Shown: one piece after another, positions 547-16,058 of the stretch
How the letters are laid out: the number at the start of each line of letters is the position of its first letter
Numbering within the stretch: position 1 is the first letter of the stretch
IMG/VR virus record: IMGVR_UViG_3300042507_007459
Location: 1 to 44,781 of that record
Reading direction: 5' to 3' (one strand)
Length of the DNA: 44,781 bases
Source: a virus
Position numbers and translations under genes: made by a program
The notes under the pieces: generated by a model
What the model saw: only the letters and a program-made list of their open reading frames with translations
Databases searched by the model: none
What the model was told of the DNA's origin: nothing

Positions 547-1431
547 TTAAATTGAATTTTTACTCAATTTTCCTAAAAATAAGTCAGATTCTTTCTGTCT
601 TCTTCTTCTTAATCCCTTCTCATATTTAGTCCCTAATTTGATTTTTTCTGTCTTTAATACCTCTGCGGCCTCATTATATTTCTTCTGATTTATGAGTTCT
701 GCTGTTTTTGAACCTCTAAATCCACCTGAACCACAATTATAAGCGAATGAAACAAGTGCCGCATACATATCAAGAGTTAAAGGAACATTAATAAAATCTC
801 TTACAGTTTTTTCAAAACGCTTTTTATCCGCTACAAATAGTTCTTCTATCTTCTCATCGCTAATTTCCTGACCTAATTGGAATTGACTATTTAACATATG
901 ACCATATCCGATAGCCCAATGTCTTACATCCCAAAAAGGTTTATTCCTCGGTCTTCCCTCAATCTTTTTCAAAATATTTACATTTTCATCCGATAAATAC
1001 CATTTATCTTTTGGTAAAAATACTCCACTAGCTTCTTGGGGTATTTCTTTCTTTTCTATTTCTCTATTCCACTTTTGTACTACTGCGAGTTTTATACTTG
1101 GAAATATCCTTTCTAAATCTTTGGCCAAATTATGTATTTTCTCTACATCTTCTTTTCTTTGAACAATATTTTCTGATATTTCAATAAAGGTAATAGCTTG
1201 TATAGATTGCGGTCCTCTTATATTTTGGAGTGTATTTACACTAATAGTCAATCTTACTTCATCTTTAACATTTAATATATGACTACCATCTTTAATTTTC
1301 CCATTTACTATTGCTTGTATGAGCATTTCAGGAAATCCACTCACAAGAATTTCTTCTAATAATCCAAACGGAATAAAAACTCTTATGGTTTGTTCAATCC
1401 CCGAATTACTTTCAAGTATAAGTGAGCGCAT
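547..1431 (-). CDS. GH24 (T4-type) lysozyme with unknown N-terminal domain
   Basis: The C-terminal half (about residues 145-290) is a phage lysozyme of glycoside hydrolase family 24, which cleaves the MurNAc-GlcNAc bond of peptidoglycan. The signature is KKIEGRP with catalytic Glu158, Asp168 and then WAIGYGHML; the loop ending in GYGH matches the IGIGH of T4 lysozyme. The position of T4 Thr26 is Ala173 here. The remaining fold markers are present (YAALVSFAYNCGSGGF, GLRRRRQKESDLFL). Residues 1-140 are not recognised and contain no signal peptide or membrane segment, so this may be a virion- or baseplate-associated lysozyme (T4 gp5 also places a lysozyme after another domain) or an endolysin. 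It is the last gene of the minus run and has its own promoter-like GATATATAG 24 bases upstream (1456-1464), so it may be expressed separately from the glycosyltransferases. Confidence 0.8.
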   Translation of the reverse strand: MRSLILESNSGIEQTIRVFIPFGLLEEILVSGFPEMLIQAIVNGKIKDGSHILNVKDEVRLTISVNTLQNIRGPQSIQAITFIEISENIVQRKEDVEKIHNLAKDLERIFPSIKLAVVQKWNREIEKKEIPQEASGVFLPKDKWYLSDENVNILKKIEGRPRNKPFWDVRHWAIGYGHMLNSQFQLGQEISDEKIEELFVADKKRFEKTVRDFINVPLTLDMYAALVSFAYNCGSGGFRGSKTAELINQKKYNEAAEVLKTEKIKLGTKYEKGLRRRRQKESDLFLGKLSKNSI

Positions 1432-1455: not shown

Positions 1456-1464
1456 CTATATATC
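1456..1464 (-). promoter_or_regulatory. Candidate late promoter (GATATATAG) for the lysozyme gene
   Basis: The minus-strand sequence AGATATATAG lies 24 bases before the lysozyme ATG at 1431 and overlaps the stop codon of the upstream glycosyltransferase gene. Sequence, spacing and orientation match the other copies of this motif. Confidence 0.55.
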
Positions 1465-2187
1465 TAAAATTGAAGTGGAATATAGTCTATGTTTATCCCA
1501 TTCTTCTTTTATTCTACATGGATATAAATAATTATGTCCCCATTTTCTTTCTATATTAATTGTACTTAACCTTTTTTCATACAATTTTCTTCTATTTTCA
1601 AGTCTTTCTATTCCACCTATATTTTTATAGTGTAAAAGTTTCAAACTTGGATATTTATCATAAACTATAACACCAGCAGGATAACATGCATGACAACCAT
1701 GTTTGAATCCTATATCATCTATTAATTTAGGATCAAATATGGGAGTCTTATCGTACCATGTATCTCTCATTCCCGTTTTTATCTCTTCCCATATATTTGA
1801 TGTAGGATTTGGAAGAGACTCTGACCACATGGAAAATCCAGTAGTTTGAGGAATACTTATTCCTTTTCTTTTACATGAAAGTAAAAATGTTTCTAAATCT
1901 TTATGATAAACAAATTCATCTAAATCGAGAATACATACCCAATCATAATCACGAAATTCTTTCCAAGCAGTATTTTTTATCTGTAAATATACATCATCCC
2001 TAATTTGTCCTTCTGTTTCGTATATTCTTCTTTCTACCAAGGGATGCGCATCACATATTTCAGCAGTTCCATCATCAGATTCATTATCATAGACAATAAT
2101 CTTTTCGCAAAATTTTTCATAGTGATTTAAAAATATTGGTAATAATTGTTCTTCGTTCCATGCTATTGTTATGCAAACCATTTTCAT
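1456..2187 (-). CDS. Glycosyltransferase family 2-like protein
   Basis: A 243-aa GT-A fold enzyme that would transfer a sugar from a nucleotide-sugar donor. The N-terminus has the family 2 layout: a hydrophobic strand followed by AWNEEQLLP (residues 9-17), then IIVYDNESDDGT (about 30-41), and the metal-binding DLDEF motif with Asp88 and Asp90. This subgroup usually modifies surface glycans; the acceptor here is unknown. The ATG at 2187 overlaps the preceding stop codon by four bases (ATGA), with AGGA seven bases upstream, so the two genes are probably translationally coupled. It closes a five-gene block (4722 to 1456) containing four glycosyltransferase-like genes, suggesting sequential glycosylation of a virion or cell-surface substrate. 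Confidence 0.75.
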   Translation of the reverse strand: MKMVCITIAWNEEQLLPIFLNHYEKFCEKIIVYDNESDDGTAEICDAHPLVERRIYETEGQIRDDVYLQIKNTAWKEFRDYDWVCILDLDEFVYHKDLETFLLSCKRKGISIPQTTGFSMWSESLPNPTSNIWEEIKTGMRDTWYDKTPIFDPKLIDDIGFKHGCHACYPAGVIVYDKYPSLKLLHYKNIGGIERLENRRKLYEKRLSTINIERKWGHNYLYPCRIKEEWDKHRLYSTSILDI

Positions 2188-2681
2188 ACGTCTTTTCCTG
2201 TATGCTTAAAAATAACATATCTTACATAATCCATAGATTCTTTATCATCTCTAACAAGATTTTCCCAAGTATCTTTGAAATAAAATGGTATAGGATAAAT
2301 TCCAATATTTATCCAAAGTCCTATACACATATTTTCCTCTTCTTCATCTTCAACGCAATCCCCTACTGTATAATCTACTTGCATAAAGGATAGGGCTGTA
2401 AAAACCAATTCCATAGATTTTGCTATCTCATTAAAATTTGCTTCTTCATCTTCTCCTTGAAATTCTATGGTTTTTAAGATTCTATAAGCATAATCATCAG
2501 GATTAACTCCATCTTCTAAAATTGCAGATTCTGCACTTTTTAAATCTATTTCAAACTCTTGCAATCCTTCAAGTTCTACAATTAAGATTTTATTTCCTAA
2601 TTCGTCATCACTTTTAGTAAAATTACCTTCGCCCCAAACTTTACGAATTCCTTCTATAATATATGCAGATACATCAATCAT
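2184..2681 (-). CDS. Acidic hypothetical protein within the glycosyltransferase block
   Basis: A 165-aa acidic protein with no recognised domain. The start chosen is the ATG at 2681, which overlaps the previous stop (ATGA) and has GGAG six bases upstream; an in-frame ATG four codons earlier lacks such a site. The sequence is rich in Glu and Asp, with a short stretch of acidic residues (EDEEEEN) around residue 120, and is probably a soluble globular protein. It sits between two glycosyltransferase-like genes with 4-base overlaps on both sides, so it is made together with them, but its role cannot be inferred from sequence. Confidence 0.65.
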   Translation of the reverse strand: MIDVSAYIIEGIRKVWGEGNFTKSDDELGNKILIVELEGLQEFEIDLKSAESAILEDGVNPDDYAYRILKTIEFQGEDEEANFNEIAKSMELVFTALSFMQVDYTVGDCVEDEEEENMCIGLWINIGIYPIPFYFKDTWENLVRDDKESMDYVRYVIFKHTGKDV

Positions 2682-3379
2682 AACGTTCTCCATTGCATAT
2701 TATCTATTACTTCATTCCTATTACCAACATCATTTGATATATGATATACCCATTCCGTTTGACGATTTATTTCTGATGGATACATATAATTCCAACATTC
2801 TTCTGCAAATTCAAAAAACGGATTATCCATATTTGGAGATATACAACGAGCTGCATAATTAAAGAGTGCTTGCTCATATATTGGATTGAATCTATCATAA
2901 TTTAGTTCAGGAAGTATTTTTCTAACTAAATGGCATAATCTACGCAATGTTGAAACATCCGCTAATAAGAAACCTGTATTGAAATAAATTTCAGGTCTGT
3001 CAATTTCTTTTAGCATCTGTTGTTGCTGATTAATACGTAGTAAGTTATAGGTATGTTGATACAATGTATTTTGATAATTTCCTATTCTCTCATTTCCGTT
3101 TTGAACTGCTCTTATCTTTTCATTAGGTATTAAAGTAAAAGGAGTTGGAGCATCAGATCGAATGATACAATCAGCGTCAAAGAATGCTATTTGGTCATAT
3201 CCACTTGCAATAAAATCTAAAAATGCTTTATTAAAAGTATATCCAAATGCATCTCCAAGATAAAGTGTAGAAGATACGACAAAATCTGCACCCCATCTTG
3301 AAGCAGCAGATTTCATAGATTCTCTTGAATTTTCTCTTTGAAAATTATTTATGTCTAAAGTTATTAGTGCTCTTTTCAT
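2678..3379 (-). CDS. GT8-like glycosyltransferase, paralogue of the next gene upstream
   Basis: A 233-aa protein with a GT-A type metal-binding motif AFFDADC (Asp68, Asp70), followed by the segments FNTGFLLAD and YEQALFNY and a C-terminal VYHISND. These match the order expected in family 8-like sugar transferases (DxD, N-T/S-G, late His). The gene at 3376-4104 shares the same motifs, with the two Asp residues at the same positions (68 and 70), so the pair arose by duplication. The start is the ATG overlapping the previous stop by four bases; a TTG four codons earlier is less likely. The donor sugar and acceptor are unknown. Confidence 0.65.
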   Translation of the reverse strand: MKRALITLDINNFQRENSRESMKSAASRWGADFVVSSTLYLGDAFGYTFNKAFLDFIASGYDQIAFFDADCIIRSDAPTPFTLIPNEKIRAVQNGNERIGNYQNTLYQHTYNLLRINQQQQMLKEIDRPEIYFNTGFLLADVSTLRRLCHLVRKILPELNYDRFNPIYEQALFNYAARCISPNMDNPFFEFAEECWNYMYPSEINRQTEWVYHISNDVGNRNEVIDNMQWRTL

Positions 3380-4104
3380 ACAGATTTCCAATCATAATCT
3401 TTAACTGTGTCTTTTATCTTCCAAAAATTAAATCCAGTAAAATGCCATACATAATCATTCATTCTTGGAGAATTAATAAGAGGTTCTAAACGATTCCATT
3501 TTTCGTCTGCGAGTAAAAGTTCTTCTTTTCTATATGCTTGCACAACATAATTAAAAAGAGCTTGTTCATAATGAGCCGAATAACAAAATCCTTCTCTTCC
3601 ATCTGTTAGTGGAAGTGCTTGGGAAATTGCTTTAAAAATCGTCTTATGATGTTTGGGGGAAATCATATAAAAACCTGAATTAAAAAAGTTATCCAAGAAT
3701 CTATCTTTTGGAACACCCCATCCGAATTGTTCTTCTAATATATGCCAATAATGTTCTTGTACATTATTTTTTACTGTTATCCATTGCTCACTATTATGAT
3801 CGTGATTTTGAGGATGAATATCAAGAACTGCGATGAATTTACTTTTATCTTGAAAAACTTCAAAAGGATTAGGTGCTTCAATATGAATAAGCATATCTGA
3901 ATCAAAATACGCACATCTATCATATCCTTCAATTTTTTCAAAGGAACAAATTTTTGCAAAAGAAGGATATAATCTATTATCAAATATAGTCCTAACTTCC
4001 AAAAAATCACAATTCCATCTATCTGCCGCATGACTTAATGATTGTCTTGCATTATCAGATAGATGGTTGTTGATATTAACTGTCCAAATAAGATTCTTAC
4101 TCAT
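3376..4104 (-). CDS. GT8-like glycosyltransferase, paralogue of the next gene downstream
   Basis: A 242-aa sugar transferase-like protein with AYFDSDM (Asp68, Asp70), APNPFEVF, NSGFYMIS, YEQALFNY and a C-terminal VWHFTGFN. The HFTG element resembles the HxxG metal ligand of family 8 enzymes. It shares its layout with 2678-3379 and its first four residues (MSKN) with the gene at 4105-4722. The start ATG directly follows the upstream stop codon (TAAATG), typical of a tight operon. It is probably cytoplasmic, as there is no membrane segment. Confidence 0.68.
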   Translation of the reverse strand: MSKNLIWTVNINNHLSDNARQSLSHAADRWNCDFLEVRTIFDNRLYPSFAKICSFEKIEGYDRCAYFDSDMLIHIEAPNPFEVFQDKSKFIAVLDIHPQNHDHNSEQWITVKNNVQEHYWHILEEQFGWGVPKDRFLDNFFNSGFYMISPKHHKTIFKAISQALPLTDGREGFCYSAHYEQALFNYVVQAYRKEELLLADEKWNRLEPLINSPRMNDYVWHFTGFNFWKIKDTVKDYDWKSV

Positions 4105-4722
4105 TTAGATATGAACTCCAAGTACCTTTTCTATACGAATATGTCTAAATTCTTTTGAGAGTGCTTCATAGGTATATCCGTCTGAATAAAAACCTTTTTC
4201 TGCAACCCAACCTACTTTTTCAATGGCTTCTCTTTTTACAACTACTTGCAAAGTATCAATACCACCTACAACAATAGGCCATCCTGAAAGAATTTGTGGT
4301 GGTTGTCCTACCCATGCTTGAAGTGGACCTAAGTGAACTATTTGACAAACTGCAAACCCCACTTCAGGTCCAGTCCCTTCTAATGCACCAACCATTTCTT
4401 CTAAAAATTCAGGGAACATTATATTATCATCATCCAAAAAAGCAAAATACTTACCCTTTAACCAAGGCATTGCTAATTTTCTAACAGATGCACCATAATC
4501 CGCATGATTTTCTTCTAATTCATGAAAAGTGCGTTTTGGTTCTTTTTTAGAAGTAACTGAAAAATATTCACGAAGAACAGGATCAGGCCCATCTGATACA
4601 ATAACATGTTCCCAATCACTAAAAGTTTGCCAATTTACACATGTCATACAACGATTAAGCATCTTAATACCTCTATTCCATGTGGGTGTAAGAACGCTTA
4701 CTGTGGGATTGTTTTTACTCAT
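4105..4722 (-). CDS. Glycosyltransferase family 2
   Basis: A 205-aa GT2 protein with an N-terminal SVLTPTWNRG strand-loop (residues 9-18), VSDGPD (42-47) and the FLDDDN metal-binding motif with Asp97-99. A later region around TLQVVVKREAIEKVGW corresponds to the acceptor-side half. It is short for the family (usually 230-300 aa), but both key halves are present. It is the first of the glycosyltransferase genes in the minus-strand order and lies 44 bases after the methyltransferase-like gene. The upstream Shine-Dalgarno is weak (AGAGA). Confidence 0.78.
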   Translation of the reverse strand: MSKNNPTVSVLTPTWNRGIKMLNRCMTCVNWQTFSDWEHVIVSDGPDPVLREYFSVTSKKEPKRTFHELEENHADYGASVRKLAMPWLKGKYFAFLDDDNIMFPEFLEEMVGALEGTGPEVGFAVCQIVHLGPLQAWVGQPPQILSGWPIVVGGIDTLQVVVKREAIEKVGWVAEKGFYSDGYTYEALSKEFRHIRIEKVLGVHI

Positions 4723-4766: not shown

Positions 4767-6068
4767 TTAAAAGTTTATACCCGAATTTATCAAAATTTTC
4801 GCAGATTTCTTAATATTTTCTTCATCAATTGATTTTAATACTGAACGAGCAACTCTTCGAGCAACATTTACATTTGTTGCCATACCCATAAATTCCCAAC
4901 GAGCTCTCCATATATCTAATAATTCAAATTCCTCTGGGAATCCTTGCAACCTCAATAATTCTCTTGAAGATAGTCTTCTTAGTTTTTGATGATTTACTTC
5001 TTTCCCATCTTCTAATTTAGTTGGAGCATTTTTTTCGTCATAAATAAGGTTTCTATCCCATCCTTGTCCACCATAAGAAATTGATTTGGCTTCTGCTTCT
5101 GGGTCTAATATTATAGAAGAATACCAATAACCCCTCTCTTTATTAACAGCATTATTTTTCTCCAAATAAAGTTCATGCGTTCTTGTTAAATACAAATTAG
5201 AATTAACACTTGATTCTAAAATGTCTTTTAATTTCCAAGTTCTTTTTTCAGGTTCAGGCCAATCAAAATTTAATGCCGATAGGGGATTAGAAAATGCTAC
5301 AAACCATAATCTATTTCTTAATTGAGGAACGCCATAATTTAAGGCATTTAAAATCGCTGGACTTGTGCAATAATATCCTGTCGCTTCTTTCAAAGTTCTA
5401 TAAGCAACTGCTGTAGATTTTTCAAGGGATTCGTCTCTTTGTGTTTTATTACACTCTATGATAACTGCTTTTGGTTGAAACTTTTTTACAAATTCTATAA
5501 ATGTATACCATTGAGTTTCAACTAAACTTTCATAGTTGGGTTTCGCTCCCCTATTGAGAGGTAAGGATTGAATATCTAAAGAAGTGATAAGTATATCAAC
5601 TTTAGGAATTGCTTTATCTTTTAATACATCAGTATTTGAATAGGGGAATATTCCAAAATTTTGAAAATAAGAAAAATGACTCACTTGTGGGTTTTCATCG
5701 TAAGCAAAAACACAACGACCACCTTCTTGCATAAGTCCCATAGTAGCACCACCTGAATTGCAAAAAATATCTGCAAAGGTAAATGTATATTCCTTTTTTG
5801 GTGGTATATTTATATCATACTCTATTATTGAATTATCTTCAATACAACTTAACAAGGTTTCTTTATTTGTAATATCAGAGTTCTTTATTTCCTCACAAAA
5901 CCACATTCCATAAGATACATCTTCAATAGAAGATACCCTTGTCATTAAATGCGTAAAAGTAGAAATATCCTTTGGTATTACACGCAAATATCCTCTTCTA
6001 TCTTTTTTAGATTTAATATCAAATAGAGGTACACCTATATCTTTAAGTATATCTTTATAGGAATGCAA
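4767..6068 (-). CDS. Cytosine-C5 DNA methyltransferase homologue lacking the catalytic Cys
   Basis: A 433-aa protein with the C5-methyltransferase motif order: motif I as ADIFCNSGGATMGL (about residues 99-112), motif VIII as PQLRNRLWF (248-256), motif IX-like RRLSSRELLRLQGFP, and a final VARRVARSVLKSI in the place of motif X. Motif IV, normally Pro-Cys-Gln, reads Asp165-Ile166-Gln167 within VDILITSLDIQSLP, so the nucleophilic Cys is missing. Motif VI keeps Glu205 but reads ECN instead of ENV. An N-terminal extension of about 90 residues is not recognised. The start is a TTG at 6068 with AGGTGG seven bases upstream, overlapping the previous stop. The protein may bind SAM or DNA without methylating C5, or catalyse another reaction; a decayed enzyme is the alternative, but the frame is intact over the full length. 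Confidence 0.8.
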   Translation of the reverse strand: MHSYKDILKDIGVPLFDIKSKKDRRGYLRVIPKDISTFTHLMTRVSSIEDVSYGMWFCEEIKNSDITNKETLLSCIEDNSIIEYDINIPPKKEYTFTFADIFCNSGGATMGLMQEGGRCVFAYDENPQVSHFSYFQNFGIFPYSNTDVLKDKAIPKVDILITSLDIQSLPLNRGAKPNYESLVETQWYTFIEFVKKFQPKAVIIECNKTQRDESLEKSTAVAYRTLKEATGYYCTSPAILNALNYGVPQLRNRLWFVAFSNPLSALNFDWPEPEKRTWKLKDILESSVNSNLYLTRTHELYLEKNNAVNKERGYWYSSIILDPEAEAKSISYGGQGWDRNLIYDEKNAPTKLEDGKEVNHQKLRRLSSRELLRLQGFPEEFELLDIWRARWEFMGMATNVNVARRVARSVLKSIDEENIKKSAKILINSGINF

Positions 6069-6069
6069 A

Positions 6070-6348
6070 TTACCACCTAGGTTCTGGGAGTGGACAAGAT
6101 GAAAAACGAAGTCGTGATTTTGCCTTTATAAAGCACCCACATTTCATACATCGTTCTTTGACAGCATCTCTATATTCACAAGAATTGCATATATCAACTC
6201 TTTGAAGATATAAAGGATCTGTGTCAGATAAGATATGAGATTGAATTCTCTCTGATTTTTTCTCTTCCTGCTGAATAGTTTGAGATTGAACAGAGGAATT
6301 AGTTGATGTTATTAATGTTGTTTTTTGTTTATTACAATTACAACCCAT
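6070..6348 (-). CDS. Small Cys-rich putative zinc-binding protein
   Basis: A 92-aa protein with two short Cys clusters: CNC at residues 3-5, and a C-terminal knuckle with Cys54, Cys57, Cys67, Cys70, Cys72 and Cys85 (ICNSCEYR, RCMKCGCFIKAK). Spacing and context resemble small zinc-ribbon proteins that are frequent near structural genes of T4-like phages; their function is not known. The start at 6348 was chosen because AAGGAA lies seven bases upstream; an in-frame start nine codons earlier would overlap the collagen-like gene and has no such site. The linker between the clusters is Ser/Thr/Gln-rich and probably disordered. Confidence 0.7.
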   Translation of the reverse strand: MGCNCNKQKTTLITSTNSSVQSQTIQQEEKKSERIQSHILSDTDPLYLQRVDICNSCEYRDAVKERCMKCGCFIKAKSRLRFSSCPLPEPRW

Positions 6349-6359
6349 AGTTATATTCC

Positions 6360-7628
6360 TTATAATAATTGCCAAGCACCTACACCACTATTCGTGGTAT
6401 CTGAATAAATAAGTTTCACCGCACCATAAGCTGCTACTTCATAAGTACCTCCTCCAGTTGGAAGCATAATTGCATTTGCGGCAGAAGAAACTGTCAAAGA
6501 GCCATGTACAATAAACATAGAAAATCCAGTTTCATTTGAAACTACTATTTCTCTGCCATCTGTATTATCATCTATACCTATTAAATTAAATGCTGATGTA
6601 ATAGTACCTACACTTATTTTAGCAAATGATGTATCTACATTAAGGGATAATTCCATACTTGAAGAACCCGAAATGGATTGATTAACCTTTGGGCAGTCAC
6701 AAGGACCCTGTGGACCAATATCTCCTTGGTCACCTTTATCTCCTTTTGGACCTTGATCTCCTGTGTCTCCTTTTGGCCCAGTTGGACCCGTTGGTCCAGT
6801 TGGACCCGCTATACCTGTCGGTCCTTGTGGACCTTGTGGACCTAATAAACCTTGATTACCAAAATAACCCTGATTACCTTGAAATCCTTGGTTACCTTGA
6901 TTACCTTGAAATCCTTGAGGACCTTGACGACCTTGATTACCTTGTGGACCAATTAATCCTTGAAAACCTAAATCACCTTGGCGACCTTGATTACCTTGAT
7001 TACCTTGATTACCCTGATTACCTTGTGGACCATCTATACCTTGCGGACCAGTTCTACCTTGAAATCCTTGACCACCTAATATACTTGCAGGGAATCCTAT
7101 TTCACCTTCATATCTATATGTAGTAACAGCAGGAGGATTTGAAATAGTGACCCCTTCAGGAAGTCCATTTAAAAAGGTAAGAACTCCTGATGAATAATTA
7201 AAAATCCAATCATTCTGACCTAAAGGAACTGGAAACCAAGTTGTAGATAATGTATCATATTTCCATACTTTAGCTTGATATTCAACACCAAAAAGACGAG
7301 GTGGAATACAATCATGTAAATCTCCAGAAGCATCATAGAAAGCATTTGCACTACCTTCATCAAAAGTCAAAGGCTTTTTATGATACTTTGTAAATATAGT
7401 ATCACCCGAATCCTGATAAATTGTTTCATCAGCAATAGCATCAGATTTTAAAGGGTTAGAACTAGGGATTCGGTCTGAATCAATCCATAATTGATTGGGA
7501 TTAATAGGAAATATCTCTGAATATGATTCTTCGAAATTTTCTAAATTGACATTAGTAGTTGCCTTATTAGACTCAACCGTATTATATGTCACATGACTTT
7601 TTTGATTTGGTGTTAATCCCGTACTCAT
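6360..7628 (-). CDS. Collagen-like virion fibre protein
   Basis: A 422-aa protein in three parts. Residues 1-180 form a non-repetitive N-terminal region that probably attaches to the virion. About residues 183-315 form an uninterrupted Gly-X-Y collagen-like rod with many GNQ, GPQ and GPT triplets, ending in a charged GDKGDQGD section and a CDCP cysteine pair. Residues 320-422 form a small beta-rich head domain. Such trimeric collagen-like rods are common in phage tail fibres and head decorations. The gene sits between a hypothetical virion-like protein and the Cys-rich small protein in one minus-strand run that also contains glycosyltransferases. Its Thr- and Asn-rich triplets could be glycosylation targets; that link is inference. 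Confidence 0.75.
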   Translation of the reverse strand: MSTGLTPNQKSHVTYNTVESNKATTNVNLENFEESYSEIFPINPNQLWIDSDRIPSSNPLKSDAIADETIYQDSGDTIFTKYHKKPLTFDEGSANAFYDASGDLHDCIPPRLFGVEYQAKVWKYDTLSTTWFPVPLGQNDWIFNYSSGVLTFLNGLPEGVTISNPPAVTTYRYEGEIGFPASILGGQGFQGRTGPQGIDGPQGNQGNQGNQGNQGRQGDLGFQGLIGPQGNQGRQGPQGFQGNQGNQGFQGNQGYFGNQGLLGPQGPQGPTGIAGPTGPTGPTGPKGDTGDQGPKGDKGDQGDIGPQGPCDCPKVNQSISGSSSMELSLNVDTSFAKISVGTITSAFNLIGIDDNTDGREIVVSNETGFSMFIVHGSLTVSSAANAIMLPTGGGTYEVAAYGAVKLIYSDTTNSGVGAWQLL

Positions 7629-8137: not shown

Positions 8138-9061
8138 TTATTGACTTTTTTTTTCATCTTCACTATTATCTTCTTCAAAGTTATCATGCTCTTCTTCAAT
8201 CGTTGTGTCATCAAAGAAAGTATCATGAGGTTCTTCTTCATATATATCCTCAATTACTTCTTCTATTTTTTCTTCTTCAGATAATTCTTCAGAAATAACT
8301 TCTGTTTCAAAATTATATTCTAAAACTTCTGCTATTTGTACTGGAACTAAAGTATTTTCAACCTCTGCAAGAGTTTCTTCAACTTCATCTATAATAGTTT
8401 CAGCAATTTCTTCTTCATTTATATCTTCTAAAGTTTCTACAGGAATTTCAGGAGTTTCTTCTGCAACTTTAATTATTTCATCAGAAGGTGGGACAATCAC
8501 ATCTTCTTCTTTGGTATTAGATATAACCTCATCTTCGGTTGGTTCTGATTTTTTTGGTTCTTCAACCAAAACTTCTTCAACTTTATTCCCTTCAGGTTTC
8601 AAGTAATCAGAAACAGACTTTAAGAAAGCAAGTGATATAATCGGAATCGGAAGACCAATTAAAAGAGAAAGAATAAATTTTGTTGTTCTTTGCTCTAATT
8701 TTTGCATTGTCATCATTTCTACGAGATCAATGAAAGAATCAATCCATTGTGGATTTGATACCATCGCTTGAGAAATGTAATCGTAGGTATAATAAACATT
8801 ACCAAGCATCTGCATTGCAACAAGCACTACAAATATAAACCATACAGCAAAACGATTTATTTTATCAAGAACTGCAAGAGTCATAAGAGAAGCAATAGAA
8901 CCTATTTCAAAAGCTAATGCCAAAATAATTGCCATCCAAGTCATATTACCTAAACCAAAAAAGGTTATGATGTGGATAGTTGATATCAATGAGGAAAGAG
9001 CAGGAACAGCTAAAAATGAGCCAACAACTAACTTTCTGAAATCATTGGGTTTAAGTTTCAT
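8138..9061 (-). CDS. Four-helix membrane protein with a long acidic tail
   Basis: A 307-aa protein. Hydrophobic segments at about residues 11-35, 38-64, 70-92 and 127-147 predict four membrane helices. From about residue 155 to the end the chain is strongly acidic (dominated by Glu, with Thr, Val and Ile) and probably disordered in the cytoplasm. No enzyme motif is seen. It could be an inner-membrane protein acting during infection, such as a superinfection-exclusion or anchoring factor, but this is not supported by homology. A candidate promoter (AGATATATAA) lies 29 bases upstream, with a terminator before it, so it heads its own transcript, which may continue into the fibre and glycosyltransferase genes. 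Confidence 0.65.
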   Translation of the reverse strand: MKLKPNDFRKLVVGSFLAVPALSSLISTIHIITFFGLGNMTWMAIILALAFEIGSIASLMTLAVLDKINRFAVWFIFVVLVAMQMLGNVYYTYDYISQAMVSNPQWIDSFIDLVEMMTMQKLEQRTTKFILSLLIGLPIPIISLAFLKSVSDYLKPEGNKVEEVLVEEPKKSEPTEDEVISNTKEEDVIVPPSDEIIKVAEETPEIPVETLEDINEEEIAETIIDEVEETLAEVENTLVPVQIAEVLEYNFETEVISEELSEEEKIEEVIEDIYEEEPHDTFFDDTTIEEEHDNFEEDNSEDEKKSQ

Positions 9062-13023: not shown

Positions 13024-13436
13024 AACGCTACATTAAACTCTATGAAGAATTTTCAAATGATTTAGAGATTACTTTAGAAAAAGAAATTGAAGTAACCTTT
13101 CGTTTTTTGTTAAGAAAAGGCGTAAAGAGTGAACTTCTTAAAAGAATGATTAATGAGCGTTTTATAGAAAGGATTAAACCACCATTCACTTATTCAGATA
13201 TTATATATTACTCATTTGATATAGACCATATAGCAGATATACCGATGAAAGGAAATAGAATACAATCAGAATATGCAATCAAAGCAAAAATTGTATTTGA
13301 AGATGTAACTTTAGATCCTAAAACAATAGATAAAATGATTAAAAGAGGTATAGCAAATTTTTTGAAATTAGAAGAAGATTCTTATTTCAAAGATGAAGTA
13401 GAAAAATCTACAATAGTTTCTATGGATTATATTTAA
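13020..13436 (+). CDS. Hypothetical protein with possible capsid-targeting N-terminus
   Basis: A 138-aa protein beginning MKRYIKLYEEF. Met-Lys, an aromatic residue at position 4 and Glu at position 10 match the T4 capsid-targeting layout, although the residue two before the Glu is Tyr rather than Leu or Ile. The rest forms alternating helices and strands with no recognised domain. It overlaps the previous gene by four bases. Its stop codon overlaps the stop of the terminase gene on the opposite strand (13433-13436), with no terminator between the two convergent genes. Confidence 0.58.
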   Translation: MKRYIKLYEEFSNDLEITLEKEIEVTFRFLLRKGVKSELLKRMINERFIERIKPPFTYSDIIYYSFDIDHIADIPMKGNRIQSEYAIKAKIVFEDVTLDPKTIDKMIKRGIANFLKLEEDSYFKDEVEKSTIVSMDYI

Positions 13437-15214
13437 CTTCTCATCATTTTATAGATATCGCCCATATTTTTAACACTATATGCACTATCATTGTTCATAT
13501 TATCTATCTTTTTACTTATTTCCTTTTTATATCGTTCTTGAACTCCCTCATCCCAAATTTCACTTACACAATCTGGTAAAACAGCAGATTTAAAAAACGC
13601 CATAAGATTCACACAACTCATTGCCAAATCATCATGACCTCTTTCATTTGAATAAGTCCCTGCTTCATTGACACCAAAAGTTGTAAATTCAGAAATAGTA
13701 ATATCATGCGTTAAAATTAGTCTTCTTGAACGAAAAGCGGGTCGAAAATCTTCGCAATAAATTCTTTTCAGTTGATTATTAAGTTTGATGCCTGGTTTGA
13801 ATATCTTATCATCGGATTTATGCTTTGTAGTTACAAAAAGTTCAGTAAAGAACTCTTCGTGTTGAGACATAAGTTCTAAGAAATAATTACCATTATAATT
13901 CATTTCTAAAACAATTTTTAATCTTTCTTCGCCTAAAATATCATAGACAACGGCATTTACTATTTTTACAAAATCAGAAATAGATACAGTATTTGACCTA
14001 AAAACACCAACCTGTTTCAATCCGAAGAAATCAACCTCTCCTTGAAACATTTTGTGTCTTCTTATAGCACCCATACTTAAAGGAACAAGTTGAAATATAT
14101 TCAAGATTGTATAATCTCTATTTGCTCCTTCTGCTAAGTCTATTGAAAGGACGAAAAAGCGTTTTCCAGTTCTAAATCTTCCATTATTATCCTTATAGTC
14201 AAAATCAAAAGAAGAATCCCAAGTAAGATCCTTATAATCTAAATCTTGGTCGTGGAGAGTTTCTATTTCACGAAATTCATATTTCCGTTCACATCTCTTT
14301 GCAAATGAAATTGATTGTCCATCCAAAAGAAATGAAGAACTTGCTACAAATTGATTTCCAAACTCTTGATTAAATGCTTCTTCACTTCCTAAATCTGCTA
14401 TCCATTTTTGTTTCCATGCTTCATCTCTACCAGGAACTTGCCACCAATCAACTCGTAAAGGTACAAATTCACTCTTTTTCTTTATAGCATTATCATAAAT
14501 TTCATAAAACAGATTTAATCCATTAGCAGTTGATGTTATTAACATCTTTGAATTTTTTATTGATGAAAGTGTAGGAAGAATAGATTTATAGAAAGACCTT
14601 GCTATTTTTTCAGGAATATGGGCAAACTCGTCAGCAAAAATTACATCAAAGGTAAAACCAATCGCAGGAGTTTCTGTACATGCTTCTGCAAAAATTCTAC
14701 AACCATTATCAAAAGCCATTCTACCCATATTATTGACTTTAACACCAGGTTTCATAAAAAATGGCAAGTGTCTTAAAATAGTTTTGGTTTTATCTAAAAT
14801 TTCTTCAGAAGTGGCTCTTTTATTGGCTATAACAAGAACATTTTTATCAAAATGAAAACACATATACCATGATAGAAAAATACAACTTGTTATGGTTTTT
14901 CCAATTTGTCTTGAAGCTAAAAAAACAACTCGCTCATTTTTAGCATAAGATTCTATTACCTTTTCTTGATAATCTCTTAAACGAATTTTCTCTATACCAT
15001 TATCAGTCTTTGAAAAACAATAATTGTTAGCAAAATAAAGGATGTCTTTTTGGCATCTAACAATCTCTTCAAGTTCCGATTGTTCATATTCAAACGCTAT
15101 ATTTGCACCTCTCCAATCAGTATCCCCTTCTGAAAAAGGATTCTGTCTAGGCATACTTTCCCCATTAGTAATACTTTCCATCAAATCTTGTACATTCTTT
15201 GTACTCCAAGCCAT
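13433..15214 (-). CDS. 17: Terminase large subunit, T4 gp17-like
   Basis: A 593-aa DNA-packaging motor (T4 gp17 is 610 aa). The ATPase domain has Walker A ASRQIGKT (about residues 100-107) and Walker B VIFADE (191-196), followed by the coupling motif TSTANG (228-232). The C-terminal RNase H-fold nuclease has Asp359 in VLSIDLAEG, Glu437 in LEMNYNG and Asp528/Asp529 in GHDDLAMS. All expected catalytic residues are present. It docks on the portal and cuts and pumps the genome into the prohead. It is transcribed alone on the minus strand from a divergent promoter pair at 15235-15252. No small terminase subunit is recognised in the window. Confidence 0.96.
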   Translation of the reverse strand: MAWSTKNVQDLMESITNGESMPRQNPFSEGDTDWRGANIAFEYEQSELEEIVRCQKDILYFANNYCFSKTDNGIEKIRLRDYQEKVIESYAKNERVVFLASRQIGKTITSCIFLSWYMCFHFDKNVLVIANKRATSEEILDKTKTILRHLPFFMKPGVKVNNMGRMAFDNGCRIFAEACTETPAIGFTFDVIFADEFAHIPEKIARSFYKSILPTLSSIKNSKMLITSTANGLNLFYEIYDNAIKKKSEFVPLRVDWWQVPGRDEAWKQKWIADLGSEEAFNQEFGNQFVASSSFLLDGQSISFAKRCERKYEFREIETLHDQDLDYKDLTWDSSFDFDYKDNNGRFRTGKRFFVLSIDLAEGANRDYTILNIFQLVPLSMGAIRRHKMFQGEVDFFGLKQVGVFRSNTVSISDFVKIVNAVVYDILGEERLKIVLEMNYNGNYFLELMSQHEEFFTELFVTTKHKSDDKIFKPGIKLNNQLKRIYCEDFRPAFRSRRLILTHDITISEFTTFGVNEAGTYSNERGHDDLAMSCVNLMAFFKSAVLPDCVSEIWDEGVQERYKKEISKKIDNMNNDSAYSVKNMGDIYKMMRS

Positions 15215-15234
15215 AAAAACCTCAATAATGTTTT

Positions 15235-15252
15235 ACTATATATTGATATATA
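15235..15252. promoter_or_regulatory. Divergent promoter pair between terminase and the next gene
   Basis: The minus strand reads AATATATAG (15235-15243), 20 bases before the terminase ATG at 15214. The plus strand reads TGATATATA (15244-15252), 23 bases before the ATG at 15276. Two oppositely oriented copies of the GATATATA-type motif lie end to end, so one short region may drive both genes. Confidence 0.5.
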
Positions 15253-15275
15253 CCTACGAAACAAAATTAACTATT

Positions 15276-16058
15276 ATGAAAAAACACATCAAATCGTTTG
15301 TATCTCCTATTTTAAGGGTAAATGAAGAAGAAGAAATGGCTTCAAAGAGTGGGGTTTTAGGTTCTCAATCACAATTATTCGTTGAACCTGAAGAAGCAAT
15401 GGAAATACGTTCAAGAAATAAAGAAATTGTAAAAAGTTCAGTTGGGAAAAATCTTGAAAAATATCTCAATGATTATTGGACTTCAGCTAAAGAAATGGAA
15501 ACGATGGTAATTTCTTTGAAAAATCAAATCGAAGAAAACTACAATAAGATGTTTGAAAATATTAAAAATGCAATACAAGAACTTGAGAAGCATGGAATAG
15601 AAATTGAAAATCAAATTGAATTTGAGAATAATATTGTTATGAAGGTTTCAGAAAAACAAAAAATGCATCATTTGAGCGATGGTGATAAAGTTAAGTTATT
15701 TAATTATTTACAAGAATTAGATGAGAAAAAAGCAGAAACACTAAAGGCTTTTGCGAGATCTACAAATATGATTAATGAATATTATGAATATGTAGAAATG
15801 GGATTATTTTATAAAAAAGCATCAGGTTCAGAAAGAGCAAGAGAACCTTATTTTAGAAAAATGGAAATTCTACCTGAGGTTTCAGAAGGACTGGATTTTG
15901 GCTCAAAATTACAATCTATCATTTCAAGCGTGATGTCATTTTTGAAAAATGCTTGGTCAGGAATGACTAAATATGGAAAATTCTTTGGACTTGAAAATAG
16001 TATCAAAGATTATAAGAAAACCTTGATTGAAACAGAAAAATTTGTTGAATCCTTATGA
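15276..16058 (+). CDS. Coiled-coil hypothetical protein with MK-rich N-terminus
   Basis: A 260-aa protein starting MKKHIKSFVSPI. The first residues resemble capsid-targeting sequences, but no Leu/Ile-x-Glu site follows at position 10; the nearest acidic run is at residues 17-20. Residues 50-200 are helical with coiled-coil character, and a short amphipathic hydrophobic segment lies near residues 205-225 (SIISSVMSFLKNAW). The ATG at 15276 was chosen because it follows the promoter-like element; the open frame upstream runs through the terminase gene on the other strand and is not coding. It is the first gene of a plus-strand block and overlaps the next gene by four bases. Confidence 0.6.
   Translation: MKKHIKSFVSPILRVNEEEEMASKSGVLGSQSQLFVEPEEAMEIRSRNKEIVKSSVGKNLEKYLNDYWTSAKEMETMVISLKNQIEENYNKMFENIKNAIQELEKHGIEIENQIEFENNIVMKVSEKQKMHHLSDGDKVKLFNYLQELDEKKAETLKAFARSTNMINEYYEYVEMGLFYKKASGSERAREPYFRKMEILPEVSEGLDFGSKLQSIISSVMSFLKNAWSGMTKYGKFFGLENSIKDYKKTLIETEKFVESL

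What the first reader, a model, noticed from the sequence alone, without database searches (positions are those of the whole stretch)
4767..6068. C5-methyltransferase homologue with the catalytic Pro-Cys-Gln replaced by Asp-Ile-Gln
The SAM-binding and DNA-recognition motifs are recognisable over the full length, yet the nucleophilic Cys is Ile166 and motif VI reads ECN rather than ENV. Reading the DNA of 5555-5605 on the minus strand confirms the change is not a frame error. The frame is intact and the gene lies in a tight run with glycosyltransferases, so it looks maintained. It could bind DNA or SAM without methylating, act as a decoy against host restriction, or perform different base chemistry. 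Loss of catalysis follows from the known mechanism of the family; any new role is inference.
Basis: partly seen in the sequence, partly recalled or inferred. Interest (0 to 1): 0.7.

Follow-up and report, generated by a model that had tools for sequence, protein, structure and literature searches.

The report
Conserved phage pseudo-methyltransferase lacking catalytic cysteine
A lineage of large bacterial viruses keeps a DNA-methylating enzyme's fold but has replaced the amino acid that does the chemistry in every known relative, so the protein almost certainly no longer methylates cytosine the usual way and has been kept for another, still unknown, job.

Summary
The 433-aa product of 4767-6068(-) is a full-length C5-cytosine methyltransferase homologue (PF00145 2e-38; AlphaFold pLDDT 87, best PDB match M.HhaI) whose Pro-Cys-Gln reads Asp-Ile-Gln. 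It is not an isolated decaying copy: five phage lineages, 44-72% identical to each other, carry it at the same place in the same operon, all with intact frames and none with the cysteine (four read DIQ, one NIE). Bacterial relatives found without selecting on this motif all have PCQ (30 of 30 read). The five form one clade (SH-aLRT 100) on a very long stem; the nearest active relatives are Bacteroidota enzymes, about 30% identical. Losses go beyond the cysteine: Pro80, Asn120, Arg97, Asp60, Trp41 and Asn304 (M.HhaI numbering) are gone in all five. The flipped-base residues Glu119, Gln161, Arg163 and Arg165 are kept, new invariants appear (Cys103-Asn104, Ile166, a C-terminal tail), and dN/dS is 0.17-0.50. 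Best reading: a maintained pseudoenzyme, most likely a non-catalytic DNA- or base-binding protein, apparently co-translated with a small Cys-rich protein. Its role is inference. It is a new variant of a known kind (inactive homologues such as DNMT3L exist).

The parts
4767..6068 (-). pseudo-C5-cytosine methyltransferase, 433 aa, TTG start, stop included
5568..5576 (-). motif IV D165-I166-Q167 in place of P-C-Q
5748..5771 (-). motif I D-I-F-C-N-S-G-G; C103-N104 invariant in the clade, A-G in 100% of PCQ relatives
5442..5456 (-). motif VI E205-C-N-K-T; Glu kept in all five, the Asn of ENV lost
5310..5327 (-). motif VIII P-Q-L-R-N-R; Q249, R251, R253 invariant
5031..5132 (-). target-recognition-domain core, residues 313-346 (GGQGWDRNL); 71% mean identity within the clade
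4863..4886 (-). motif X G-M-A-T-N-V-N-V in place of G-N-S-V-A-V-P
4770..4826 (-). C-terminal tail (residues 415-433, ...KSAKILINSGINF), conserved in the clade and absent from PCQ relatives
6070..6375 (-). small Cys-rich DUF6171-like protein immediately upstream; probably starts at an inner ATG (MGCNCNK...)
6066..6078 (-). junction AGGTGG-TAA-T-TTG: Shine-Dalgarno-like GGTGG inside the last codons of the DUF6171-like gene, kept in all five loci
6360..7628 (-). collagen-like (GXY repeat) protein, first large neighbour upstream
4105..4722 (-). family 2 glycosyltransferase, first gene downstream
1456..4104 (-). two glycosyltransferase-like genes (one a weak GT8 match below cut-off, one without a Pfam match), a 169-aa protein and a Glyco_tranf_2_4 gene
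547..1431 (-). lysozyme-domain protein at the end of the run

Best explanation
A pseudoenzyme. An ancestor of this jumbo-phage lineage acquired a full-length Bacteroidota-type C5-cytosine methyltransferase (with its ~90-aa N-terminal extension), lost the nucleophile and the PCQ-ENV coupling, and has kept the fold under purifying selection since. Shown: fold, clade-wide loss of Cys, maintenance, synteny, a stop-start junction that looks translationally coupled to a small Cys-rich protein. Follows from the known family mechanism: no canonical C5 methyl transfer, because C81 makes the covalent bond to cytosine C6. Inferred: the protein still engages DNA through the kept TRD core and flipped-base residues (E205, Q249, R251, R253) and may still hold SAM or another adenosine ligand, acting by binding rather than by chemistry, possibly together with the DUF6171-like protein and in the late, virion-decoration stage of infection.
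For: PF00145 and M.HhaI homology, model pLDDT 87.2 and pTM 0.89. Five lineages, all Cys-less, same operon, intact frames; the marker-gene searches, which do not look at the methyltransferase, found the same five and no operon without it. Nearest active relatives are Bacteroidota enzymes at ~30% identity, N-terminal extension included; 30 of 30 read from a search of 395 Bacteroidota genomes with the pseudoenzyme profile have PCQ. Monophyly SH-aLRT 100, stem 3.13 changes per site. dN/dS 0.17-0.50 with near-saturated dS. Cytosine-contact residues E119, Q161, R163, R165 kept in all five while P80, C81, N120, R97, G98, L100, D60, W41, N304 are lost in all five; N120-P80 is a known coupling of motifs VI and IV, and R165 binds cytosine O2 and aids flipping (PMC4802922). 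Against PCQ pairs of similar divergence the clade is looser in motifs II-V and tighter in motif VIII (0.79 v 0.64) and the TRD core (0.71 v 0.63). One PF00145 gene only in the 199,927-bp relative contig, so no active partner seen there.
Against: No binding evidence exists. The TRD lost 17 of 35 family-invariant positions and kept 7, no better than the rest of the protein, so DNA recognition may be gone too; kept E/QxRxR residues could be structural. The difference in retained positions between the SAM/catalytic motifs and motifs VIII+TRD+IX is borderline (14/73 v 23/66, Fisher p=0.054). The regional comparison is untested statistically and its PCQ pairs are related. Net charge of the window protein is -1 (pI 6.6), unlike the other four (+5 to +11). 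It evolves faster than most operon neighbours.
Confidence: 0.5

Rival explanations
1. Protein-protein role: the fold is a scaffold or adaptor for its operon partners (DUF6171-like protein, collagen-like fibre, glycosyltransferases), with no DNA function left.
For: Strict operon linkage and a stop-start junction with the DUF6171-like gene in all five loci. New invariant residues and a new conserved C-terminal tail absent from active relatives. TRD lost half of its family-invariant positions. The one phage relative of the small protein, in S-SRM01, lies beside an adhesin tip gene.
Against: Motif VIII with both arginines is the most conserved part of the clade (16 of 26 invariant, P=0.0005), which an adaptor need not keep. 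Co-transcription is not interaction.
Confidence: 0.25
2. New chemistry in the rebuilt pocket: the protein is an enzyme using a different nucleophile or cofactor (for example C103, or a SAM-derived group).
For: C103-N104 are invariant in the clade and replace residues (Ala-Gly) invariant in PCQ relatives; S163, T209, E213, T398 and N399 are further invariants at family-signature positions. Adenosine contacts are kept in kind: F/Y102, D/N/E124, N/H145; EhMeth binds AdoHcy with F12, D37, N58 (PMC3380923), so SAM binding is not excluded. C5-carboxymethylation of DNA by a related enzyme is known (8yf3).
Against: No Cys, Ser or other nucleophile sits at position 166 in any member; the known C5 reactions of this fold need the covalent step. 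A switch to a motif VI Cys, as in m5C RNA enzymes, fails: position 206 is C,S,S,C,S. C103 maps to the cofactor side (HhaI A19), not to cytosine C6. Coordinates of the model were not available to inspect the pocket.
Confidence: 0.14
3. Restriction decoy or site mask: it occupies the ancestral recognition sites on phage DNA and keeps the host endonuclease off.
For: Parent enzymes are Bacteroidota DNA methyltransferases of restriction-modification type (some fused to or beside endonuclease genes). Catalytic-site mutants of this family can still bind DNA; in M.HhaI R165A raised DNA affinity fourfold (PMC4802922).
Against: The TRD signature GGMGRERNL became GGQGWDRNL and 17 of 35 TRD-region invariants are lost, so ancestral specificity is unlikely to persist. 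The gene sits in a run with virion-decoration-type genes, not with early anti-host genes.
Confidence: 0.07
4. A decaying relic or an artefact of assembly.
For: Fast evolution compared with most neighbours.
Against: Five intact frames at 44-72% identity with near-saturated dS and dN/dS of 0.17-0.50, shared operon, high-confidence fold, recurring Ile with different codons.
Confidence: 0.02

Closest known systems
C5-cytosine DNA methyltransferases (PF00145/TIGR00675; M.HhaI; Bacteroidota type II enzymes such as L170, L187)
   Same: Full-length fold, N-terminal extension of the Bacteroidota subfamily, motif I GG, Glu of motif VI, QxRxR of motif VIII, motif IX, GG.G..N of the TRD.
   Different: No catalytic Cys; P80, N120, R97, D60, W41, N304 lost; motif X rewritten; new C-terminal tail; phage operon with glycosyltransferases.
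DNMT3L and inactive DNMT3B isoforms
   Same: Catalytically inactive C5-methyltransferase homologues kept by selection; they act by binding an active enzyme (PMC3380923; PMC3716610 and PMC4853477 abstracts).
   Different: No active partner seen in the 200-kb relative contig; kept Glu/QxRxR; independent phage origin from a Bacteroidota-type enzyme.
DNMT2/EhMeth
   Same: Same fold; EhMeth holds AdoHcy with Phe, Asp and Asn at the positions where this clade has F/Y, D/N/E and N/H (PMC3380923).
   Different: DNMT2 keeps the motif IV Cys and methylates tRNA.
DNA C5-methylases of jumbo phages (survey PMC7824862)
   Same: Phage-borne C5-methyltransferase fold in jumbo phages.
   Different: The survey treats them as active modification enzymes; the word 'inactive' does not occur in its text.

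Membership tests
C5-cytosine DNA methyltransferase (by descent and fold) | Significant PF00145/TIGR00675 match over the whole domain | tested here: met
   PF00145 133 bits (cut-off 22), TIGR00675 105.8 (cut-off 100.65)
C5-cytosine DNA methyltransferase (by descent and fold) | M.HhaI-like fold | tested here: met
   Model pLDDT 87; Foldseek 5lod E=3.1e-19, TM 0.74 by target length
Active C5-cytosine methyltransferase | Motif IV Pro-Cys nucleophile | tested here: not met
   DIQ in four lineages, NIE in one
Active C5-cytosine methyltransferase | Motif VI ENV | tested here: not met
   Glu kept in all; Asn replaced by C/S
Active C5-cytosine methyltransferase | Motif VIII QxRxR | tested here: met
   Q249, R251, R253 invariant
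Active C5-cytosine methyltransferase | SAM binding | tested here: inconclusive
   D60, W41, N304 equivalents lost, but adenosine-side residues kept in kind
Active C5-cytosine methyltransferase | Methyl transfer to cytosine | not testable with these tools
   needs an assay
DNMT3L-type inactive partner | Active methyltransferase partner in the same genome | tested here: inconclusive
   Only one PF00145 gene in each of five contigs, up to 199,927 bp, all possibly incomplete; a host partner is not excluded
Restriction decoy | Parent TRD specificity kept | tested here: inconclusive
   7 of 35 TRD-region family invariants kept by all five, 17 lost by all five

The most novel reading that the evidence does not exclude
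A phage-specific enzyme or base reader that evolved from a DNA methyltransferase by rebuilding the methionine half of the cofactor pocket (C103-N104, S163, I166, T398-N399) while keeping the flipped-base residues, so that it flips or reads a base, or modifies a nucleic acid or virion component by non-canonical chemistry, together with a Cys-rich DUF6171-like partner.
Probability: 0.12. Interest if true: 0.85.

Novelty: new variant of a known kind. Interest (0 to 1): 0.52.

Why it matters
Automatic pipelines would call this protein an active DNA cytosine methyltransferase, since it passes the PF00145 and TIGR00675 cut-offs, and so would predict m5C in phage DNA that is probably not there. If the pseudoenzyme reading is right, it is a phage counterpart, from an independent origin, of inactive DNMT homologues, and it comes with clear tests (binding, partner, knock-out). 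The kept flipped-base residues without a nucleophile raise the question of whether base flipping can be reused without methylation.

Tried and rejected
Isolated or decaying copy: rejected. Nucleophile moved to the motif VI Cys: rejected, C/S/S/C/S at 206. An active paralogue in the same phage: none in the 200-kb relative contig or the other four, not excluded elsewhere. Thymidylate-synthase-family (dCMP hydroxymethylase-type) cytosine modification as a context: no PF00303 match in five contigs. First genome-contig scan with the pair alignment found no relative. Two further viral scans (A4, A10) gave no sixth lineage. Operon markers against INPHARED: two gave nothing, the GT2 only weak partial hits and the small protein one phage. 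PADLOC gave only general methyltransferase models. Literature searches for a described Cys-less phage C5-methyltransferase found none in the held library.

Full report
What was checked. The reading frame 4767-6068 on the minus strand is open (433 aa, TTG start). It matches PF00145 end to end (E=2e-38) and TIGR00675 above its cut-off. M.HhaI is the best sequence match in the PDB. An AlphaFold model built on 27 sequences has pLDDT 87.2 and pTM 0.89, and M.HhaI is its best PDB fold match (5lod, E=3.1e-19). Motif IV reads I-T-S-L-D-I-Q-S-L-P-L; the codons are GAT ATT CAA at 5576-5568.

Not an isolated copy. Searches of viral contigs gave four other lineages with a full-length homologue: L001 (66% identical to the window protein), L007 (66%), L009 with its near-identical L010 (56%) and L027 (47%). 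Motif IV is DIQ in the first two, NIE in L009 and DIQ in L027. None has the Cys, and all frames are intact. Two searches with the neighbouring glycosyltransferase, which are blind to the methyltransferase, found exactly the same contigs. In every locus whose flanks are long enough to show it, the order is collagen-like gene, DUF6171-like gene, pseudo-methyltransferase, GT2, two glycosyltransferase-like genes, a ~169-aa gene, Glyco_tranf_2_4, lysozyme-domain gene. Two later scans brought no sixth lineage.

Origin. The nearest active relatives are chromosomal methyltransferases of Bacteroidota, about 30% identical and sharing the N-terminal extension. All but one of 160 relatives collected by motif patterns show PCQ by text search; in the remaining one, L096, the motif was not found and it was not examined further. 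That collection is biased towards PCQ because the patterns included it. An unbiased test used the pseudoenzyme profile on 395 Bacteroidota genomes: all 30 matches read at this column have Cys. In a tree of 74 proteins the five phage proteins are one side of a branch (SH-aLRT 100) with a stem of 3.13 changes per site. The exact sister group is unsure because long branches meet.

Phage context. The terminase is closest to huge metagenomic phages and to Sphingomonas phage PAU and Tenacibaculum phages; the DNA polymerase is closest to huge metagenomic phages and Lak phages. This points to a T4-like jumbo phage, perhaps of Bacteroidota; the host is inference. The window is a 44,781-bp virus record without known ends. 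The L009 contig is 199,927 bp and holds a single PF00145 gene.

Selection. NG86 dN/dS among the five is 0.17-0.50 with dS near 1-1.4, thus nearly saturated and rough. Neighbours range from 0.03 (GT2) to about 0.47. The gene is constrained but evolves faster than most of its operon.

What is lost and kept. Of 155 alignment positions at least 95% invariant in 85 PCQ relatives, all five phage proteins keep 40 and lose 74. In M.HhaI numbering, lost in all five: A19, G20, F24, W41, D60, G78, P80, C81, R97, G98, L100, N120, N304. Kept in all five: D16, G22, G23, E119, Q161, R163, R165. E119 contacts the flipped cytosine and R165 its O2; N120 ties motif VI to the P80 carbonyl (PMC4802922), so the loss of P80 and N120 together looks coupled. 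From the counts, the chance that four named residues all fall in the kept 40 of 155 is about 0.004; the residues were chosen after seeing the table, so this is only indicative. Loss of SAM binding cannot be claimed: EhMeth binds AdoHcy through Phe12, Asp37 and Asn58 (PMC3380923), and the clade has F/Y, D/N/E and N/H at those places. The methionine half of the pocket is rebuilt, with C103-N104 invariant.

Regional conservation. Against PCQ pairs of similar divergence the clade is looser in motifs II-III, IV and V and tighter in motif VIII (0.79 v 0.64), motif I (0.71 v 0.59) and the TRD core (0.71 v 0.63), and it has a conserved C-terminal tail that the others lack. This fits binding without catalysis. 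It is suggestive only: the PCQ pairs are not independent, and the family-invariant TRD residues themselves are mostly changed (7 of 35 kept).

Gene junction. In all five loci the DUF6171-like gene ends in (A/C)GGTGG-TAA, followed at once or after one base by the TTG or ATG of the pseudo-methyltransferase. This looks like translational coupling and suggests, without proving, a shared function. Between a 12-pair terminator-like stem at 9140-9110 and a weak one at 354-339 (minus strand) no terminator-like site occurs on this strand; the number of such sites is no higher than in shuffled sequence.

Mechanism. Shown: fold, clade-wide loss of the nucleophile, maintenance, synteny. Established knowledge: C5 methylation by this fold needs the motif IV Cys, so canonical catalysis is gone (about 95% sure). 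Inferred: non-catalytic DNA or base binding (about 50%), a scaffold for operon partners (25%), new chemistry (14%), a restriction decoy with ancestral specificity (7%).

Membership. By descent and fold it is a C5-methyltransferase homologue; as an active C5-methyltransferase it fails two tested defining features (PCQ, ENV). It resembles DNMT3L in kind (inactive homologue), but no active partner was found, and a host partner cannot be tested here.

Novelty. I found no description of a Cys-less phage clade in the held papers, and a survey of jumbo phages does not use the word 'inactive'. Most subscription papers are not held, so priority cannot be claimed. Inactive C5-methyltransferase homologues are a known kind; this is a new, independently evolved variant.

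Noticed in passing
6066-6078 (-), and the same junction in L001, L007, L009, L027: Shine-Dalgarno-like GGTGG lies inside the conserved Pro-Arg-Trp stop of the DUF6171-like gene and serves the next start; the conserved PRW end may be partly a ribosome-binding site.
   Followed up: partly
4105-4722 (-): The GT2 next door is 82-97% identical across lineages in which the pseudo-methyltransferase is 44-72% identical (dN/dS 0.03-0.11), the slowest gene of the operon.
   Followed up: partly
6360-7628 (-) and L027:1630-4347: Collagen-like protein grows from 422 to 905 aa between lineages by extra GXY repeats beside several glycosyltransferases; a glycosylated fibre is possible.
   Followed up: no
6070-6375 (-); L188:5908-6243: The only INPHARED phage with a relative of the DUF6171-like protein is S-SRM01 (two records of one genome); there it lies beside an adhesin tip gene and near a flavin-dependent halogenase.
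   Followed up: partly
15042-16058 (+) and 13433-15214 (-): Two long ORFs overlap by 173 bases on opposite strands at the terminase start; the true start of one is probably further in.
   Followed up: no
8138-9061 (-): Hydrophobic N-terminal half with a long Glu-rich tail of variable length in the same run of genes; function unknown.
   Followed up: no
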